Below are positions 7,776 through 63,865 of a stretch of DNA of 64,000 bases, piece by piece. The number at the start of each line of letters is the position of its first letter. The stretch's first letter is position 1. This DNA comes from Planctomycetota bacterium (GTDB taxonomy: Bacteria > Planctomycetota > UBA1135 > GCA-002686595): positions 42,071 through 106,070 of the forward strand of contig JAJDET010000366.1 in assembly GCA_029259655.1 (NCBI GenBank). The letters run 5' to 3'. A model generated the notes under the pieces. The model had not been told where the DNA came from. It made no database searches and was given only the letters and a program-made list of their open reading frames with translations. The translations under genes were made by a program, and so were the position numbers.

Positions 7776-9338
7776 ATGCGCGGCGTGCGCCCCGAGACCC
7801 GCTCCTCGCCGCCCGGTCGAGAGTCCTACCTCCTGATGTGGCTGGTCTGGGCCCTGGGCGTGGCGTGCGCAGTCCTCTCGATCGTCCTGGTGGTCGAGAC
7901 GGTTCAGACCATGGCGGTGCGGACCGGAAGTCCCCTGGTCTACGACCGCCTCGGAGGGTCGATCGTCGACCACTGCATTCGCATCCGCCAGGGGCTCCCG
8001 ATCTATGCCGAGCCCGACGACCGCTTCGTCGCGATCGTCTACACGCCGCTCTACTACGTCCTCGCGGCAGGGGTCATGTCCGTCGTGGGCGAGGGCGTCT
8101 TCGCCTGCCGGCTCACGTCCGTGCTCCTGATCGGAGGGTCGCTCGCGGTCGCCGTCGCCCTCGTCCGGCTCACGACCCGCCGTGTCGGGTGGGCGCTCTT
8201 CGCGCTGCCGATCGCGGCCGCCGGTTACCCGATCTGCGCCTTCTTCTACGACTCGCCCAGGACCGACCAGGCGAGCACGCTCATGGTGCTCCTCGCGATC
8301 TGGACGGCGGCTCGTTTCGCGGGACTCAGGAGCGGGGTCGCCCTGGGAGTCCTCCTCGGCCTCGCGTACTTCAGCAAGCAGAGCACGCTCGCGTTCTCGG
8401 CGATCTTCCTCCTCGGCCTCCTGTTCCTCGATCACCGGCGAGCACTCCTGGCCGGCGTCGTGTTCGGCGTCGGCACCGGTGCCGCGGTGGGTCTGATGAC
8501 CTGGATCTCGGACGGCTGGTTCTGGACGTACTGCGTGTACCTCACCACGCAGCACGAGATGCCGATGCAGCGCGCACTCGCGGCTCTTCGGGACGATTGG
8601 GGCACGGCCTTCCTCATCCCGGTCCTCGTGTGCGCGGGCGTCGCCCTCGCTCTGGCCCTCTGCAAGCGAAGGGGCGAACCCGAGCGCAGGACGTTCATCC
8701 TGTTGCTGGGCGGCCTGGGCATCGCGGCCTTCAGCTTCACGTCGCACACGCGGGTCGGGGCGACCTTGAAGGTGCTGATGCCGTTCTGCCTGTTCGCGGC
8801 CGCGGCGGTGCCGGCGGGCATGGGCTGGCTGGAGGGACTGCGGGAGGGACGGGCCTGGCGCTCGTGCGTTCGCCTGCTGGCACTGCTCCTCGTCTCCGGC
8901 TACCTGCTCCAGCACCGGTTCGATCCGGAAGACGCGCTCACGTCTCCGAGGGCGCTGGTGCTCTGGGACGAGCTGAAGGTGGAGGTCGAGCGGTACGCGA
9001 GGAAGGGCCAGGTCTGGGTCGGACCGTGGGGCTACTTCACGACTCCCATGGAAGGGCAGGGCATGCGGCCGGAGCAGGTCGCCCTCGAGGACTACCTGGG
9101 GATTCACGGTCACTCGACCGGCCTGCCGTTGCCGCCCGCGCTGGTCGAAGCGATCCGCGAGCAGCGCTTCGTCGCGATCATCTGGCACGTGTATGGCGGC
9201 AACGACCGGCTGCACCAGCTCCTGAAGGAGCACTACGCCCCCACCGGCAAGCCCCTGAACACGCACGTGGGGATCGTCAGGAGGAAGATGGTCGTTCGGG
9301 CGTGGGAGCCTCGCCCGCGACCGGGAACGGACGGCTGA
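7776..9338 (+). CDS. polytopic membrane protein, probable GT-C (GT39/ArnT-like) glycosyltransferase
   Basis: 520 residues with about ten membrane helices and a soluble C-terminal domain. Near the N-terminus VYDRLGGSIVDHCIRIRQG leads to the first external loop; a later loop has FFYDSPRTDQAS. Overall this resembles PMT/ArnT-type transferases that use a lipid-linked sugar donor at the outer face of the membrane, but family signatures are weak and I infer the function from architecture and from the glycosyltransferase cluster that follows. Start ATG 7776 is preferred over 7704, which lies inside the divergent gene. Confidence 0.6.
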   Translation: MRGVRPETRSSPPGRESYLLMWLVWALGVACAVLSIVLVVETVQTMAVRTGSPLVYDRLGGSIVDHCIRIRQGLPIYAEPDDRFVAIVYTPLYYVLAAGVMSVVGEGVFACRLTSVLLIGGSLAVAVALVRLTTRRVGWALFALPIAAAGYPICAFFYDSPRTDQASTLMVLLAIWTAARFAGLRSGVALGVLLGLAYFSKQSTLAFSAIFLLGLLFLDHRRALLAGVVFGVGTGAAVGLMTWISDGWFWTYCVYLTTQHEMPMQRALAALRDDWGTAFLIPVLVCAGVALALALCKRRGEPERRTFILLLGGLGIAAFSFTSHTRVGATLKVLMPFCLFAAAAVPAGMGWLEGLREGRAWRSCVRLLALLLVSGYLLQHRFDPEDALTSPRALVLWDELKVEVERYARKGQVWVGPWGYFTTPMEGQGMRPEQVALEDYLGIHGHSTGLPLPPALVEAIREQRFVAIIWHVYGGNDRLHQLLKEHYAPTGKPLNTHVGIVRRKMVVRAWEPRPRPGTDG

Positions 9339-9449
9339 CGGGCGGAAGCCCTCCATCAGGAGGCGAATCCGGTCGACGAGAGGGGCGTGAGGTCTCTTCC
9401 TCCTGAGAGCCCGGACCGGGCTGCCGGGGCGACCTTCGGCGGGACGAAC

Positions 9450-10586
9450 ATGCTCCTCGGAGCGCTGGCGCGCGCGGCGTGGCCCGGCCGCCCGCCGGAG
9501 CAACCCGAACGGGTCTGTCTGTGGCGTACCGGCAACGTCGGGGACCTCGTGTGCGCGCTCCCGGTGCTTGCCGCCGCGCGCGTGCGGTGGCCCGAGGCGC
9601 AGCTAACCCTGCTCACGTCGCCCGGTGCGCGCGGCGCGCCCGGCGCGCGCGAGCTCCTCGCGGACGCGACCTGGATCGACGACCTCAGCGTCTATCACCC
9701 CGACGAGGTCTCCTGGAGGGCGTTCGCGCGCGAGCTGCGCGATCGCCGCTTCGACGTCGTGCTGCGATTCCCGCAGAACCGGACCTCTGCGCGCCGCGAG
9801 CTCCGCGACCTCGCCTTCCTGCGCTCGGCGGTCCGTCCGGGATGGGCGCGCGGGTTCGCCGTGGGAGGCCTGACTTGGATCTCACGCGGTCTCGGCGCCC
9901 GGTACGCCCACGGCCGGACGCTCGAGCACGAGTCGCGACGCCTCCTCGATCTCCACGAGGAGGCCGGCGGACCGGTCCGCCGGCCCGAGTTTCCGCTCCC
10001 GATCGGCGGTGCGGTTGCCGAGCGCGCGGAACACCTCTTCGCCGAACACGGCCTCGGCCGCGGTCCGCTGCTCTGCATCGCGCCGGGGGCCAAGCGCGCG
10101 ACGAACCGCTGGCCCGCCGAGCGCTTCGGCGCCGTCGCCCGGAGCTGGCTGGCCAACGGAGATCCGGTGGTCCTGCTCGGGGGGGCCGGAGATCGACCGC
10201 TCGCCGAACGCGTCCTGGAGGTCGCCGGCGAAGGTCTGGTCGACCTCTGCGGCGAGAGCCCGCTCACCCTGTCGGCGGCGATCCTCGCACGCGCGAGCGT
10301 GTGCGTCGCGAACGACAGCGGGTGCATGCACCTGGCAGCGGCCGTCGGGACGCCGTGCGTGATCCCGTTCTCCGCACGCGACGCGACGGGACGCTGGCAT
10401 CCCTTCGAACCGGATGGGGAGACCACGAGGCACGCGGTGATCCGGCGCTCCCCGCCCTGCTCGCCGTGCTGGCTCGAGACCTGTCCCCACGACAACGCCT
10501 GCCTGATCGACATCGAGACCGAGGAGGTCCTGCGCTCGGCCCGGGAGCACGCCCGGCGCCTCTCCTCGCCCGCGGTCGCAATATGA
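9450..10586 (+). CDS. GT9-family (heptosyltransferase-like) glycosyltransferase
   Basis: 378 residues, two Rossmann-like halves. The N-terminal WRTGNVGDLVCALPVL is the GT9 GxGD loop. The C-terminal half has IAPGAKRATNRWP and VANDSGCMHLAAAVGTPCV, the donor-binding signature of ADP-heptose:LPS heptosyltransferases, followed by CSPCWLETCPHDNACL, the Cys-rich segment common in this family. It probably adds heptose or a related sugar to LPS core or exopolysaccharide. The ATG at 9450 is preferred; a GTG at 9387 would extend the N-terminus by 21 residues. Confidence 0.88.
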   Translation: MLLGALARAAWPGRPPEQPERVCLWRTGNVGDLVCALPVLAAARVRWPEAQLTLLTSPGARGAPGARELLADATWIDDLSVYHPDEVSWRAFARELRDRRFDVVLRFPQNRTSARRELRDLAFLRSAVRPGWARGFAVGGLTWISRGLGARYAHGRTLEHESRRLLDLHEEAGGPVRRPEFPLPIGGAVAERAEHLFAEHGLGRGPLLCIAPGAKRATNRWPAERFGAVARSWLANGDPVVLLGGAGDRPLAERVLEVAGEGLVDLCGESPLTLSAAILARASVCVANDSGCMHLAAAVGTPCVIPFSARDATGRWHPFEPDGETTRHAVIRRSPPCSPCWLETCPHDNACLIDIETEEVLRSAREHARRLSSPAVAI

Positions 10587-59087: not shown

Positions 59088-61670
59088 CTAGGGCCGGATC
59101 ACGTTCTCCGACTCGGCGTCGAGCTCGATCGGGATCCGCGCCACCAACCCGCTCTCCGAGCCGAGTGCGATCTCGACCGCGAGGTCGTACACCAGGTACT
59201 CCGCGGAACGGTCGCCCGGCATCGGCGCCAGGCTGACGCCGCCGGCGGTGCCCTGCACTGCGGGCCTGAACGGAACAGGAGCCCCGTTCGCGTCGAGGAA
59301 TGCGAAGGCGCTGAAGTCGGGAGAGGTGTTCCCGCGTTCGACCACGACGCGGCACACGCGGCTGGCGACCACTCGCAGGTCTGTCACGTCGTCGACGAGA
59401 TCGAGCTCGATCTTGCGCGTCTGCAACGACGTCCCGTAGGCGAGCAGGACGCCCCCTTTCCGCGCGACGCCCTTCAGGACGAAACGGCCCTCGGCGTCGG
59501 TCAGGACGGGCTCTCCGGTCAGGCGCGTCCGGTAGCGCTTTCCGTTGGGCAGCGGGGCATCGAGCCGGGGATAGGCCCGCGCCACGCGCACCGACTCCAG
59601 GGCGTTCCCCTGCTTGTCCACGACGACGCCGCGGGCTTCCGGAAAAAGCCCGCCGGGCCGAAACTGCAGCGTGACGCCCACGACTCCGGCCTGGATGGGC
59701 TCGGTCTCGAACCACTCGCGAGTCTCGAGGTCGGCAACACGCAGGACGTAGGGCTTGTCCTGCATCCCGCGCAGGAGGAAGAACCCCTCGGACCTCGTGA
59801 TGGTCGCCTCCAGCGATCCGCCGTCCTGCGCACCTCCCATGACGTGCTCCGTGAACAGCGGCGGTCGTTCGTCCGGCGGCAGCCCGAGGACGTCCGGCCT
59901 GGGGGCCCAGACCGCCGCGTGTTCGTGCGGTGTGCCGTCGGCGCGCAGGACGATGCCGGTGATGTCCAGGGCCTCCTCCTCGAAGGCGAGGACGAGACGC
60001 TCCCACCGCGCGTCCTCTCGTGCGACGGCGAGCTGGAGCGGCTGGTATCCGCGCGCCGCTGCGCGCAGTACGCCTCGCACCGGACGCTCCGCCCCGTTCG
60101 CAGGGTCCGGAGGCTCCAGCCGGAACTCACCGCGTTCGTCGGTCGTCGCGATGGTCGTCCAGTCGAAGGAGAGGCACGCGCCCTCGATGGGACGCCCGAG
60201 CGGATCGAGGACGCGACCGGCCAGGACGTGCTCCGAGCGGGCCGAGTGGAGGTGCACGACGAACACGTTCTCGGACAGCTCGGCGAGCACGAGGTCCTCG
60301 TCCTCGAAGCCGTTCTTGCGGAAGCGCAGGGTTCCGTCCGGGACGAAGGGCGCGCTCTCGAGAACGAAGCTCCCGGCCTCGTCCGTGAACACGCTCGGTT
60401 CGTGGGCGATCCGCGTCGGCAAGCCGTCCTCGCGCTCGCAGAACCGGTCCGGCTGCCGCAACTCCACGCGCACCGATTGCAGGGGGTCCCCGTCGTCGTC
60501 CAGGACTCGGCCCTCGATCGTGCGCGACGGAGCGACACGCACGACGGGACTCGGTGGAGGCGGATACTCGACGATCACGGCAGTGGAGACGGTCGACCAC
60601 TCCCCGGCCTCCACTCGGATCCAGCCGTTCTGATCCGGCATCGGGAGCGAGAACCCGCCGTCGGATGCGCTGGTCGTCTGCCACACGTCGCGGGAGCTGT
60701 CCGCGCTCGGCTGGATGCGCAGGTCGATGCGCTGCAGGAACTCCTCGTAGCCCGCGCTGTCGCGGTCGGCGAACAGGAACGCGTTCCCCGGCGACAGAGG
60801 CTCGAACCGGAGTCCCAGGCCGGCCACCGGGGCACCGTTCGCGTCGAGTACTCGCCCGGCCCAGGTAGCGGAAGTCGCGGGCTCGGGCGCAGGCTCCGCG
60901 GCGCTCTGGACGTTCTGGACGGACGCGCGCGCGGCGACGGGGGTCGGCCCGGGCGCGCGAACTTCGACCGGCTCATCCTCGATGCGCGGCGCGGATGCTA
61001 CCGGGTCGGGAGTCGTGGTCTCGCTCCATCGATCGACGGCGACCCAGACGAGGCCCACGACGGCGAGCACACCTGCGACCGCGGCTCCCGCGCGAAGCGG
61101 CGGGGTCGGACTCTCCCGCTGATCGCCGAGGAGGCCCGCGACGAGGACGACCGACCAGGAGCGCCGCCCGTCGAGCCGGCGGTCGAGGTGCTCGCGCAGC
61201 TTCCCGTTGGCGCGGTAGAGCCAGGAGTCGACGGTCTTCGTCGAGACATCGAGCTCGCGCGCGATCTCGCGCGGCGCAAGATCCTTCTCGTAGCGCAGCA
61301 GCACGGCGCGGCGGTAGGGCTCGTCGAGCTCACAAACACCGCGGAGCAATTCCGCCTGGAGCTCGCGAAACACGAGCGTCTCGCGCGGCGTCGTCGGTCG
61401 ACGCTCTCCCGCCGCGATGCTCTCGACGTGGCGCCGTTTCACCTCTCGTTCGATCGCCCGCCGCGCGGCGTTGACGACGCTGCGCTTGAGCCACGGACGC
61501 AACGACTTGGAATGCGCGGGCCCTCCGCGCAGGGCGGTCAGGAGCACTTCCTGGACACAGTCTTCCGCCAGGTCACGATCGCGAAGGATCGCGGCGGCCA
61601 GCCTCATCAACCAGGGGCGGTGTGACTCGAGCTCCTCGGGGTCGAGGTCTTCCGGGCGTGTCCCTTCCAT
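59088..61670 (-). CDS. ECF-type sigma factor fused to a membrane-tethered CarboxypepD_reg-like domain array
   Basis: 860 residues. Sigma region 2 spans about 15-80 (LRDRDLAEDCVQEVLLTAL) and region 4 about 105-165 (LAPREIARELDVSTKTVDSW). One membrane helix follows (GAAVAGVLAVVGLVWVAVDR, about 195-214). The remaining 640 residues are extracytoplasmic, with at least five repeats of the form GRVLDxxGxPxxxxxV (near 271, 386, 485, 571 and 680), typical of carboxypeptidase-regulatory or Ig-like beta domains. The sigma factor would be held at the membrane and controlled by an external signal or proteolysis. Its start is 217 bases from the divergent peptide gene. Confidence 0.88.
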   Translation of the reverse strand: MEGTRPEDLDPEELESHRPWLMRLAAAILRDRDLAEDCVQEVLLTALRGGPAHSKSLRPWLKRSVVNAARRAIEREVKRRHVESIAAGERRPTTPRETLVFRELQAELLRGVCELDEPYRRAVLLRYEKDLAPREIARELDVSTKTVDSWLYRANGKLREHLDRRLDGRRSWSVVLVAGLLGDQRESPTPPLRAGAAVAGVLAVVGLVWVAVDRWSETTTPDPVASAPRIEDEPVEVRAPGPTPVAARASVQNVQSAAEPAPEPATSATWAGRVLDANGAPVAGLGLRFEPLSPGNAFLFADRDSAGYEEFLQRIDLRIQPSADSSRDVWQTTSASDGGFSLPMPDQNGWIRVEAGEWSTVSTAVIVEYPPPPSPVVRVAPSRTIEGRVLDDDGDPLQSVRVELRQPDRFCEREDGLPTRIAHEPSVFTDEAGSFVLESAPFVPDGTLRFRKNGFEDEDLVLAELSENVFVVHLHSARSEHVLAGRVLDPLGRPIEGACLSFDWTTIATTDERGEFRLEPPDPANGAERPVRGVLRAAARGYQPLQLAVAREDARWERLVLAFEEEALDITGIVLRADGTPHEHAAVWAPRPDVLGLPPDERPPLFTEHVMGGAQDGGSLEATITRSEGFFLLRGMQDKPYVLRVADLETREWFETEPIQAGVVGVTLQFRPGGLFPEARGVVVDKQGNALESVRVARAYPRLDAPLPNGKRYRTRLTGEPVLTDAEGRFVLKGVARKGGVLLAYGTSLQTRKIELDLVDDVTDLRVVASRVCRVVVERGNTSPDFSAFAFLDANGAPVPFRPAVQGTAGGVSLAPMPGDRSAEYLVYDLAVEIALGSESGLVARIPIELDAESENVIRP

Positions 61671-61887: not shown

Positions 61888-62070
61888 ATGACCGAGAAGA
61901 ACGACGTTCCCCTGTTCGCTCACCTGCTCCAGGACCAAGCCCCCCCGAAGGTGAAGACCGGCCTGAAGGCCGGAACGGGCTGTGACTTCACCTACACGGC
62001 CAGCGGCAATGTCGGTGTCCTGACCGACATCAACTGCACGCCCCAGCCCTGGCCTCCGGGCGGCTTCTAG
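61888..62070 (+). CDS. graspetide (microviridin-like) RiPP precursor peptide
   Basis: 60 residues. Leader motif VPLFAHLLQDQ (7-17) matches the PFFARFLE-type helix that microviridin and other graspetide precursors present to their ATP-grasp ligase. After KVKTGLKAG (21-29) comes the probable core, ending TPQPWPPGGF. It has Thr/Ser and Lys nucleophiles, only two side-chain acids (Asp33, Asp47) and two cysteines (Cys32, Cys50). Start ATG 61888; an in-frame ATG at 61843 would add 15 residues before the leader motif. The ligase gene follows 68 bases downstream. Whether Asp side chains or the C-terminus form the cross-links is unknown. Confidence 0.8.
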   Translation: MTEKNDVPLFAHLLQDQAPPKVKTGLKAGTGCDFTYTASGNVGVLTDINCTPQPWPPGGF

Positions 62071-62084
62071 ATCGCTCGAACGAC

Positions 62085-62125
62085 AACGGGCCGCGCGGCC
62101 TCCGACCTCTGCCGCGCGGCCCGTT
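62085..62125 (+). terminator. strong hairpin between precursor and ligase genes
   Basis: A perfect 15-bp inverted repeat (AACGGGCCGCGCGGC and its complement) around an 11-base loop, filling most of the 68-base spacer. No T-run follows, so partial termination or mRNA stabilisation is more likely than full termination. Either would give more precursor than ligase, as peptide clusters need. Confidence 0.6.
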
Positions 62126-62138
62126 ACCTCAGTCCAGC

Positions 62139-63149
62139 GTGAGAGTTCTCGTCGTCACGCGCTCCGACGACGTCGACACGGCCGCCCGCGTCGCTCGCGA
62201 GCTCTCCGATTGCGGCGCCGACGTCTACCGGCTCGACACGGATCGATTCCCGACCGACGAGCGGGTCGGGATCGCGCTCGCCCCGGCCGCGTGCGAGACC
62301 GAGCTCCATCTGAACGGTCGGCGCCTGCTTCTCTCCGAGGTGGACGCGGTCTGGTACCGGCAGTTCGATGCGGGCAGCGGGTTGCCGGAATCGATGGACG
62401 AGGGGCTCCGGTACTCCGCCGTCCTCGAGTCGCGAGCGATGCTCTTCGGGCTCCTCGAGAGCCTCGAGGTGTACTGCCTCGACCCTCTGGCGAACGTGCG
62501 GCGCGCCGAGAACAAGGAGCTGCAGCTCCGGCTCGCCCGCCGCCACGGGCTCGACATTCCGCGCACCCTGATCACGAACGACGCGGCGGCACTCCGCGCG
62601 TTCGCGAAGGATTCTCCCGGCGGTGTCGTCGCGAAGATGCTCCAGCCGCCGAGGCTCCGCGGAAAGGACAAGAACCGCGTTCTGTACACACAGCCCGTCA
62701 CGGACGAGGTCCTCGAACGCGCGGACAGCCTTCGACTGTGCCCGATGGTCTTCCAGGAGCGGCTGGCCGCCATGTGGGAGCTCCGCGTGACGATCGTCGG
62801 CCGGCACACGTTCACGGCCGAGCTCGAGCACCTCTCCGGGTCCGAGGTCGATTGGCGCCGGGACGCGGAGCGCGTCGCGACGCGCTGGCGAGCCACCGAG
62901 CTCCCCGACGACGTGGGTGATCGCCTGCGAGCCCTGCTGGACGAGCTGGGGCTGGACTACGGCGCGATCGACATGATCCAGACGCGGGACGGGCGCTTGG
63001 TCTTCCTCGAGGTCAATCCCGGCGGGCAGTACCGCTGGCTCGAGGAGCACGCGGCGCTCCCCATCTCGGCGGCCATCGCGGAGGTGCTCACGAGCCCCTC
63101 CGCGCGCCGCGCTCCGGCCCGCCCCGGCGTGCTCGACCCGCTCCGGTAG
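62139..63149 (+). CDS. ATP-grasp ribosomal peptide ligase, MvdC/MvdD family
   Basis: 336 residues. The N-terminus VYRLDTDRFPTDERV matches the RFDTDRFPT segment of microviridin ligases; DAVWYRQFDAG, RAENKELQLRLARRHGLDIP and TLITNDAAALRAFA continue the family pattern. The ATP-grasp core has GGVVAKMLQPPR, VFQERLAAMWELRVTIVGRH and the metal-binding FLEVNPGGQYRWLE. It would use ATP to join Asp/Glu carboxylates to Thr/Ser (ester) or Lys (amide) side chains in the upstream peptide. GTG start at 62139. A single ligase suggests one chemistry or a dual-specificity enzyme. Confidence 0.9.
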   Translation: MRVLVVTRSDDVDTAARVARELSDCGADVYRLDTDRFPTDERVGIALAPAACETELHLNGRRLLLSEVDAVWYRQFDAGSGLPESMDEGLRYSAVLESRAMLFGLLESLEVYCLDPLANVRRAENKELQLRLARRHGLDIPRTLITNDAAALRAFAKDSPGGVVAKMLQPPRLRGKDKNRVLYTQPVTDEVLERADSLRLCPMVFQERLAAMWELRVTIVGRHTFTAELEHLSGSEVDWRRDAERVATRWRATELPDDVGDRLRALLDELGLDYGAIDMIQTRDGRLVFLEVNPGGQYRWLEEHAALPISAAIAEVLTSPSARRAPARPGVLDPLR

Positions 63150-63196: not shown

Positions 63197-63865
63197 ATGA
63201 ACGTCGATCGAATGCTCGGGGGTCTCCTCGACGGGCGCAGCGGGGTCGGGACGGGACTCCTCGGAGGTCTGGCGGGGAGAGCCCTGCTCGGCCGGAGAGG
63301 AATGCGACTGGGCGGGCTCGCGCTGCTCGGAGGACTCGCCTGGATGGCCTACAACAAGTTCATCGCGAAGAAGGACGGCGCGATCCTCGCTCCGGAGGCG
63401 AGCTCGACGACGACCGTCGTGACGGGCTCCCCGGACGCACCGCGGGTCGCAGGGGAGATCACTCCTCCGCCGGAGGGCAGTCCTTTCTTCCCCGCCGCGG
63501 ACGACGGCGCGCGCGACGAGCTCGGCCTCTTGCTCGTGCGCGCGATGATCGCTGCGGCGAAGGCCGACGGTGAGCTCGACTTCGAGGAGAGCACTCACAT
63601 CTTCGGGAAGATCAGCGATCTCGGCCTCGACGATGCGGAGCGCGCCTTCATCGAGAGCGAGCTGCGCTCACCGCTCGATGTCGCCTCGATCGTGGAGGCA
63701 GCGAAGACGCCGGAAGCGCGGACCGAGGTCTACACGGCCTCGATGCTGGTCACCTCCTCGATCAACGACGCGGAGCGCGAGTACCTCGAGGAGCTGGCGG
63801 ACCGTCTGGAGCTGGACGAGGCGCTCGTGCACGAGATCGAGGCGACGGTCGGCGCAGGCAGCTAG
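63197..63865 (+). CDS. DUF533/TerB-like membrane-associated protein
   Basis: 222 residues. The N-terminus (LLDGRSGVGTGLLGGLAGRA, LGGLALLGGLAWMAYNKF) is the Gly/Leu-rich segment of DUF533 (YebE-type) proteins; a linker rich in Thr and Pro follows. The C-terminal helical domain (LLLVRAMIAAAKADGELDFE, FIESELRSPLDVASIVEA) is TerB-like, with the AAKADGxLD acidic loop. Function unknown. It lies 47 bases after the ligase gene, so co-transcription with the peptide cluster is possible, but the family is widespread and not known for RiPP work. Confidence 0.8.
   Translation: MNVDRMLGGLLDGRSGVGTGLLGGLAGRALLGRRGMRLGGLALLGGLAWMAYNKFIAKKDGAILAPEASSTTTVVTGSPDAPRVAGEITPPPEGSPFFPAADDGARDELGLLLVRAMIAAAKADGELDFEESTHIFGKISDLGLDDAERAFIESELRSPLDVASIVEAAKTPEARTEVYTASMLVTSSINDAEREYLEELADRLELDEALVHEIEATVGAGS

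What the first reader, a model, noticed from the sequence alone, without database searches (positions are those of the whole stretch)
61888..63149. Minimal graspetide (RiPP) cluster in a probable planctomycete
The 60-residue gene carries VPLFAHLLQDQ, which aligns with the PFFARFLE-type leader helix of microviridin precursors. The next gene has the RLDTDRFPTD N-terminus and ENKELQLRLARRHGLDIP and EVNPGGQYRWLE segments of MvdC/MvdD ATP-grasp ligases. Precursor and ligase alone, without transporter, protease or acetyltransferase, form a compact system. The core does not show the TxKxPSDxE/D(E/D) motif of microviridins, so the cross-link pattern may be new.
Basis: partly seen in the sequence, partly recalled or inferred. 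Interest (0 to 1): 0.92.

Follow-up and report, generated by a model that had tools for sequence, protein, structure and literature searches.

The report
New cysteine-bracketed graspetide precursor and ligase
A planctomycete carries a 60-codon peptide gene next to the gene of a ring-forming type of enzyme that is predicted to tie the peptide to itself, and the same pair, with the same unusual peptide core holding two cysteines, sits in a second planctomycete lineage, so it looks like a small new branch of a known family of ring-tied peptides (graspetides).

Summary
Window 61888-62070 encodes a 60-residue precursor (leader PLFAHLLQ...VKTGLKAG, core TGCDFTYTASGNVGVLTDINCTPQPWPPGGF). Window 62139-63149 encodes an ATP-grasp ligase closest to MvdD/MdnC (330 bits, against 31 for RimK; best PDB match MdnC 5ig9). 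The small frame is real and paired: a Phycisphaerales MAG (L006) carries a homologous precursor next to a 49% identical ligase. The cores agree in 21 of 31 aligned residues, the leaders in 12 of 29, third codon positions in about a third. No other such core turned up in the searches made. Both genomes also hold a separate two-ligase microviridin-type cluster. This ligase and its ten best matches share NPGGQY, where 107 of 120 listed have NxxGE, and lack the usual MvdD hairpin signature. The core has two acidic residues, two cysteines and no KxPSD. In both species Cys-Cys and Thr-Asp fall in one antiparallel register, so I predict one Thr-to-Asp ester inside a disulfide-closed hairpin. That chemistry is untested. 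'Minimal, without transporter' is not shown: the contig ends 851 bases after the ligase, the sister cluster has a C39 exporter, and this genome's one detected C39 exporter lies by its other cluster. New variant of a known kind.

The parts
61888..62070 (+). precursor peptide gene, 60 aa plus stop
   Evidence: homologue L006:5609-5818; purifying selection pattern; the two-row profile found only this and the L006 copy in a 5.8-billion protein search
61888..61974 (+). leader region, residues 1-29, ending VKTGLKAG
   Evidence: Profile A2, in its leader part only (matches within positions 5-44), finds leaders of other planctomycete graspetide-type precursors and the one on this genome's contig C123; the KAG end as cleavage site is inferred
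61909..61932 (+). leader helix motif PLFAHLLQ (residues 8-15), counterpart of PFFARFLE
   Evidence: Sequence; aligned with PFFTRFLE of L006; L002 has PFFARFLE
61975..62067 (+). core region, residues 30-60: TGCDFTYTASGNVGVLTDINCTPQPWPPGGF
   Evidence: 21 of 31 aligned residues identical to the L006 core; Cys32/Cys50 and Thr35/Asp47 each sum to 82, and 38/57 and 41/54 each sum to 95 in L006; AlphaFold2 model at low confidence puts strands at 32-39 and 42-50
62139..63149 (+). MvdD/MdnC-like ATP-grasp ligase, 336 aa
   Evidence: TIGR04184 330 bits, PF21068 E 1.1e-27; 5ig9 MdnC E 3.7e-69 by sequence, TM 0.87 by model
62634..62690 (+). ligase residues 166-184, KMLQPPRLRGKDKNRVLYT, in place of the MvdD hairpin signature KMxxSFA...ExVVFT
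   Evidence: The signature halves are in 76 and 85 of 97 MvdD-like rows and in 0 of 11 rows of this clade; that it is the leader-holding hairpin is inferred from the MdnC Val182 contact
63015..63032 (+). ligase motif NPGGQY (residues 293-298), where most listed relatives have NxxGE
   Evidence: NPGGQY in 11 of 120 listed ligases (P0002-P0012), NxxGE in 107, other NxxGQ in 2; clade in tree

Best explanation
The 60-codon gene and the MvdD-like ATP-grasp ligase gene behind it are a precursor-ligase pair that recurs with the same core in a second planctomycete lineage, and the ligase is predicted to tie a core threonine (Thr35 or Thr37) to Asp47 by an ester, inside a hairpin that a Cys32-Cys50 disulfide would likely close. 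Shown by calls: the two genes, homology of leader and ligase to microviridin systems, conservation of the core, and a ligase clade with its own signature residues. Inferred: the leader helix docks on the ligase's central domain as in MdnC; ATP phosphorylates the Asp47 side chain and a preceding Thr hydroxyl attacks it, losing one water; the second conserved acid (Asp33, Glu39 in L006) may take a second link, for which Thr30 is the only preceding core donor. Also inferred: after export the two cysteines oxidise to a disulfide, and the leader is cut after KAG by a C39-peptidase exporter, which in this genome would act in trans from contig C123. A role as a secreted protease inhibitor is only a guess from characterised graspetides.
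For: Ligase family. ATP-grasp site kept: K126, K166, R216, D278, E291 and N293 are invariant and E207 nearly so in an alignment of 43 rows, and all seven are identical in MdnC (alignment); their catalytic role is recalled, not tested. Pair conserved. Core kept better than leader (21 of 31 against 12 of 29) with third positions at 0.35 and 0.34. Leader homologous to microviridin-type leaders. Register: Cys32+Cys50 = Thr35+Asp47 = 82, and 38+57 = 41+54 = 95 in L006, in spite of one inserted loop residue (positions; sums mine); the low-confidence model gives strands 32-39 and 42-50. MvdD-type enzymes make the esters, and nucleophile precedes acid in microviridins (PMC7823629, passages). Leader-ligase covariation: leader Arg goes with ligase Asp at the MdnC-192 position in 9 of 9 loci, no Arg with no Asp in 5 of 6; the window's His/Val fits. 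Exporter.
Against: No chemistry was tested. Only two core sequences are known, so 'conserved' rests on one pair. The precursor model has mean pLDDT 55.7 and its fold search was uninformative. Thr30, Ser39 (Asn in L006) and Thr46 (Ser) are other possible donors, and Asp33/Glu39 another acceptor, so the link is not fixed by sequence. The precursors of the eight closest ligases (P0003-P0010, 56-61% identical) could not be reached. The covariation p of 0.002 ignores relatedness, counts 35 Weeksellaceae loci (34 of them Chryseobacterium) as one row, has one exception (L093), and was counted after I had noticed it. No exporter is visible beside the window's pair.
Confidence: 0.55

Rival explanations
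1. The ligase makes two esters (Thr30 to Asp33/Glu39 and a Thr to Asp47) or a hairpin of two esters with reversed order for one of them; the cysteines play no special part.
For: Both acidic residues of the core are conserved as acids, D33/E39 and D47/D54; [quoted passage not shown]
Against: A Thr30-Asp33 ring would be very small; for Asp33 no other core donor precedes it, and nucleophile-first order is the rule in the passages read. D/E exchange at 33 fits a tolerated non-linked acid as well.
Confidence: 0.25
2. A cysteine is the nucleophile: the ligase makes a native thioester (Cys32 to Asp47, or Cys50 to an acid).
For: Both cysteines are kept in the two species; graspetide ligases are reported to make non-native thioesters when the nucleophile is swapped (PMC12291112 and PMC13097080, passages); the clade has its own motif NPGGQY just after the conserved E-x-N.
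Against: No native thioester graspetide was mentioned in the passages read; thioesters are labile; Thr35 and Thr37 are equally conserved.
Confidence: 0.12
3. The pair is decayed or idle: the small core is no longer processed, and only the canonical cluster on contig C123 works.
For: No exporter visible beside the pair; leader motif diverged (PLFAHLLQ); no second pair of this type among the 81 genomes of the window's family.
Against: Open frames, third-position pattern and a core kept better than the leader between two classes (the classes differ, since all 154 held genomes of the window's class were searched without meeting L006's ligase); ligase with a full ATP-grasp site and pLDDT 92.
Confidence: 0.06
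4. The ligase is a RimK-like or other amino-acid ligase and the small frame is chance.
For: ATP-grasp fold in common; weak RimK score of 31 bits.
Against: MvdD 330 bits, Foldseek order, conserved neighbour frame.
Confidence: 0.01

Closest known systems
Microviridin (MvdE/MdnA with MvdD/MdnC and MvdC/MdnB)
   Same: Leader with a PFFARFL-type helix; MdnC-like ligase (38-40% identity to 5ig9 chains)
   Different: One ligase, not two; core lacks TxKxPSD and has two cysteines and only two acids; ligase has NPGGQY and no SFA..ExVVFT signature
Canonical planctomycete microviridin-type clusters (this genome's C123, G505 C28, G016, G078, G063, G641, G686, G780)
   Same: Same leader family with VKTxxKAG-like end, same ligase superfamily, same phylum
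   Different: They carry an MvdC-like plus an MvdD-like ligase and K(Y/W/F/A)PSD cores
Single-ligase graspetides (plesiocin, thuringinin, fuscimiditide)
   Same: One ATP-grasp enzyme; hairpin connectivity is the model I propose (passages)
   Different: Core motifs differ (recalled); the plesiocin ligase PsnB is 22-24% identical in the structure alignments
Stryphnines, sponge knottins with a Ser-Glu side-chain ester (PMC13418204, abstract start and passages)
   Same: Ester in a disulfide-rich small peptide, the combination predicted here
   Different: From a sponge, with no grasp enzyme found according to the passage; no relation by sequence claimed
Cysteine-containing graspetide precursors of SPASM-type loci (PMC8939145, passages)
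   Same: Conserved cysteines in ATP-grasp-linked precursors
   Different: There the cysteines are thought to go into thioethers by radical SAM enzymes; Pfam scans of 12 window frames and 4 of L006 named no radical SAM protein

Membership tests
Graspetides (class) | ligase homologous to graspetide synthetases (MvdD/MvdC/PsnB type) | tested here: met
Graspetides (class) | short precursor gene next to the ligase, with a recognised leader | tested here: met
Graspetides (class) | side chain to side chain ester or amide links in the product | not testable with these tools
   Needs mass spectrometry
Microviridin (group 1) | core TxKxPSDx(E/D)(E/D) | tested here: not met
   Sequence of the core; motif TxKxPSD as given in PMC7823629
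Microviridin (group 1) | two ligases, ester-making MvdD and amide-making MvdC | tested here: not met
   One ligase gene in the pair and one in L006's cluster; the contig end leaves genes to the right of the window unseen
Microviridin (group 1) | PFFARFL leader motif | tested here: inconclusive
   PLFAHLL here, PFFTRFL in L006; homologous by profile
MvdD equivalog TIGR04184 | score over the curated cut-off of 475 bits | tested here: not met
   330 bits; this genome's canonical MvdD also falls short at 419
Plesiocin/thuringinin type | their repeated TTxxxxEE-type core (motif recalled) | tested here: not met
   No such repeat in the core
RimK family | TIGR00768 score over 143.4 bits | tested here: not met
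   31.3 bits
One of the numbered graspetide groups (24 older plus 19 new) of PMC13097080 | ligase falls in the group's similarity cluster | not testable with these tools
   Group tables are supplementary files; look-ups were capped at 0

The most novel reading that the evidence does not exclude
A natural graspetide in which a disulfide and an ATP-grasp-made ester (or even a native cysteine thioester) staple one hairpin from opposite faces, made by a ligase clade that rebuilt its leader clamp and active-site edge (NPGGQY) for this core, and kept by planctomycetes alongside an ordinary microviridin-type cluster.
Probability: 0.3. Interest if true: 0.65.

Novelty: new variant of a known kind. Interest (0 to 1): 0.45.

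Why it matters
Graspetide ligases are being developed as peptide-cyclising tools (PMC12291112, passages). Here the core is kept better than the leader between two classes of planctomycetes, it holds a pair of cysteines that the canonical cores seen here lack, and the ligase clade has changed its leader-clamp and NxxGE positions. If the prediction holds, it gives a doubly stapled hairpin from one enzyme plus oxidation, and a natural test of which ligase residues set core choice.

Tried and rejected
Window precursor as a query against 5.8 billion proteins: only itself; with the L006 row added: itself and L006's copy, P0122. These searches need several shared 5-residue words, so other members may be missed. 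itself missed P0122. The ligase search scored 7997 candidates and listed 120 of 138 hits.

Searching for more pairs: relatives 3 of 41 genomes with a ligase at E 1e-20, family 5 of 81 at 1e-40, whole held class 4 of 154 (query P0004), phylum 5 of 392 and 6 of 392 (with at least four of the same contigs under new handles), class of G505 4 of 397. With the precursor profile: order of G505 4 of 114 and phylum 4 of 392. In these only G000 and G505 carry the NPGGQY ligase or this core; the other hits were canonical or other types. In the larger searches only the top 5-15 candidates of a genome were scored. Phyla outside Planctomycetota were not searched this way, beyond the one genome-contig scan (44 loci), where L006 alone had NPGGQY among those inspected. 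Viral contigs: 15 pattern matches, no relative. MvdD profile over 14 control genomes: 0.

A strictly conserved Arg-Asp contact was considered and weakened: Asp at the MdnC-192 position is in only 64 of 104 MvdD-like rows (duplicates included). Rows dropped from the covariation count: L008-L011 and L022 (no leader found by the pattern), L044, L100 and L101 (no MvdD-type motif found). NPGGQY is not the only departure from NxxGE: P0119 and P0121 have other NxxGQ forms.

Full report
What is there. The window encodes a 60-residue frame at 61888-62070 and a 336-residue frame at 62139-63149, on the same strand, 68 bases apart. Left of them, on the other strand, is an 860-residue protein with sigma-70 regions and carboxypeptidase-regulatory-like domains (59088-61670), right of them a DUF533 protein (63197-63865). 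The window's last base is the last base of contig C297, so the gene content to the right is unknown beyond DUF533.

The ligase. It scores 330 bits with MvdD, 267 with MvdC and 31 with RimK profiles, all under the curated cut-offs of 475, 425 and 143.4, and has the MvdD pre-ATP-grasp domain. MdnC (5ig9) is the best solved relative by sequence (E 3.7e-69) and by model (pLDDT 92; TM 0.87). The window's ligase and its ten best matches (P0002-P0012) have NPGGQY; among the 120 listed proteins 107 have NxxGE and two others have another NxxGQ form. In a tree of 150 rows the NPGGQY rows form one group by one change of label; the split with exactly these rows has support 68, the one that adds P0041 has 89, and window plus P0003-P0010 has 100 (quick method; P0012 is represented by L006). 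Where most MvdD-like ligases have KMxxSFA...ExVVFT, this clade has a proline-bearing stretch: the two halves of the signature are in 76 and 85 of 97 MvdD-like rows and in 0 of 11 of this clade (Fisher p 4e-7 and 4e-9, not corrected for kinship). The review PMC7823629 (passages) says a hairpin of MdnC holds the leader, with contacts of leader Arg17 to Glu191, Asp192 and Asn195 and of Ser20 to Val182; by the alignment Val182 lies in the VVFT half, so I read this stretch as that hairpin.

The precursor. L006, a Phycisphaerales MAG, has MPSNNDLKKSQDAPFFTRFLEGREFPNVKTGIKAGTGCEFTYTPNGPNSAVLSDVICTPQPYPPGPGTF 182 bases upstream of a 49% identical ligase. Against the window's peptide: 70.5 bits. Residues 30-60 are 21 of 31 identical, residues 1-29 12 of 29; third-codon identity is 0.35 and 0.34. 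The profile of the two precursors matches, in its leader part only (within positions 5-44), the precursors of canonical clusters in this genome, G505, G016, G099, G641, G686 and G780 and of the single-ligase locus of G288. So the leader is microviridin-like and the core is not.

Two systems in one cell. On contig C123 the window's genome has a canonical cluster: precursor PFFARFLEGQ...LKYPSDDDDD, MvdC-like and MvdD-like ligases in tandem. The one C39 peptidase found in this 91%-complete genome is in a 919-residue C39-ABC protein 2.1 kb from that precursor. G505, the genome of L006, likewise has a two-ligase cluster with K(F/W)PSD precursors on another contig. In L006 an HlyD protein and a C39-ABC exporter follow the new-type ligase. 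The KAG at the leader end stands where Chryseobacterium precursors have KGG, which suggests a C39 cut there; this is inference.

Mechanism. By homology (MvdD enzymes make esters; nucleophile precedes acid; PMC7823629, passages) the likely link is from Thr35 or Thr37 to Asp47. In both species the sums of positions for Cys-Cys and Thr-Asp agree (82; 95), as cross-strand pairs of one hairpin would, although the loop differs by one residue (positions). AlphaFold2, at low confidence (mean pLDDT 55.7, 66-67 in residues 31-50), puts strands at 32-39 and 42-50. Hence the model: one ester on one face, a disulfide on the other. The disulfide needs only oxidation after export. None of this was tested.

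Leader and ligase in step. At the MdnA-Arg17 and MdnC-192 positions, loci with leader Arg have ligase Asp in 9 of 9; loci without Arg lack Asp in 5 of 6 (exception L093); the window is His with Val. Fisher p 0.002 with the window, 0.005 without. The 35 Weeksellaceae loci are one row here (count). The pattern was noticed before it was counted and kinship is not corrected, so it is support, not proof.

Literature. Passages were read of PMC8939145, PMC12291112, PMC13097080 (one section whole), PMC7823629, PMC5934393 and PMC13418204; the rest were search listings. PMC13097080 adds 19 graspetide groups to 24 older ones; PMC8939145 counts 174 families and notes cysteine-bearing precursors. Five searches joining graspetide, microviridin or omega-ester with disulfide, cysteine, thioester or planctomycete showed, in their listings and the passages I opened, no description of this core, but the group tables are supplementary and could not be opened, so it may be listed there. 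P0122 is deposited as 'hypothetical protein MI923_00850'.

Verdict. A real, conserved precursor-ligase pair of the graspetide kind with a new cysteine-bracketed core: a new variant of a known kind. The claim of a minimal, transporter-free system is not supported.

Noticed in passing
G000 contig C123, L088:7344-7496 (-): A 50-codon frame downstream of the canonical MvdD gene reads MKVKTAIQGGKKPGSGGGDPPIPYGDDTPPPIPFPVP from its inner Met: leader end without the PFFARFL helix, perhaps a second precursor.
   Followed up: partly
L094:8071-8274 and 8466-9485 (G288): Another single-ligase planctomycete pair whose core (TTAVVLPPPIPHLTAPVTVDYGDS) lacks KxPSD; a different non-canonical core under the same leader type.
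   Followed up: partly
window 59088-61670; L098:9178-9744; L094:7363-7899; L088:6361-6990: Sigma-factor genes lie next to four of these planctomycete graspetide loci, three of them divergent from the precursor. A motif of recalled origin found 3 in 15 fetched stretches, all three confirmed as PF07638 ECF sigma factors; the window's was found by Pfam. No background rate was measured.
   Followed up: partly
window 59088-61670 (-): One frame joins sigma-70 regions 2 and 4 to carboxypeptidase-regulatory-like domains, an unusual-looking fusion.
   Followed up: no
L100:9157-9339 (G905): Precursor with leader PFFARLL and three KYPSD/KYPND-like cores in a row.
   Followed up: no
P0003-P0010 (no loci): Eight ligases, 56-61% identical to the window's, share its NPGGQY motif and altered hairpin; their hosts and precursors are unknown.
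   Followed up: partly
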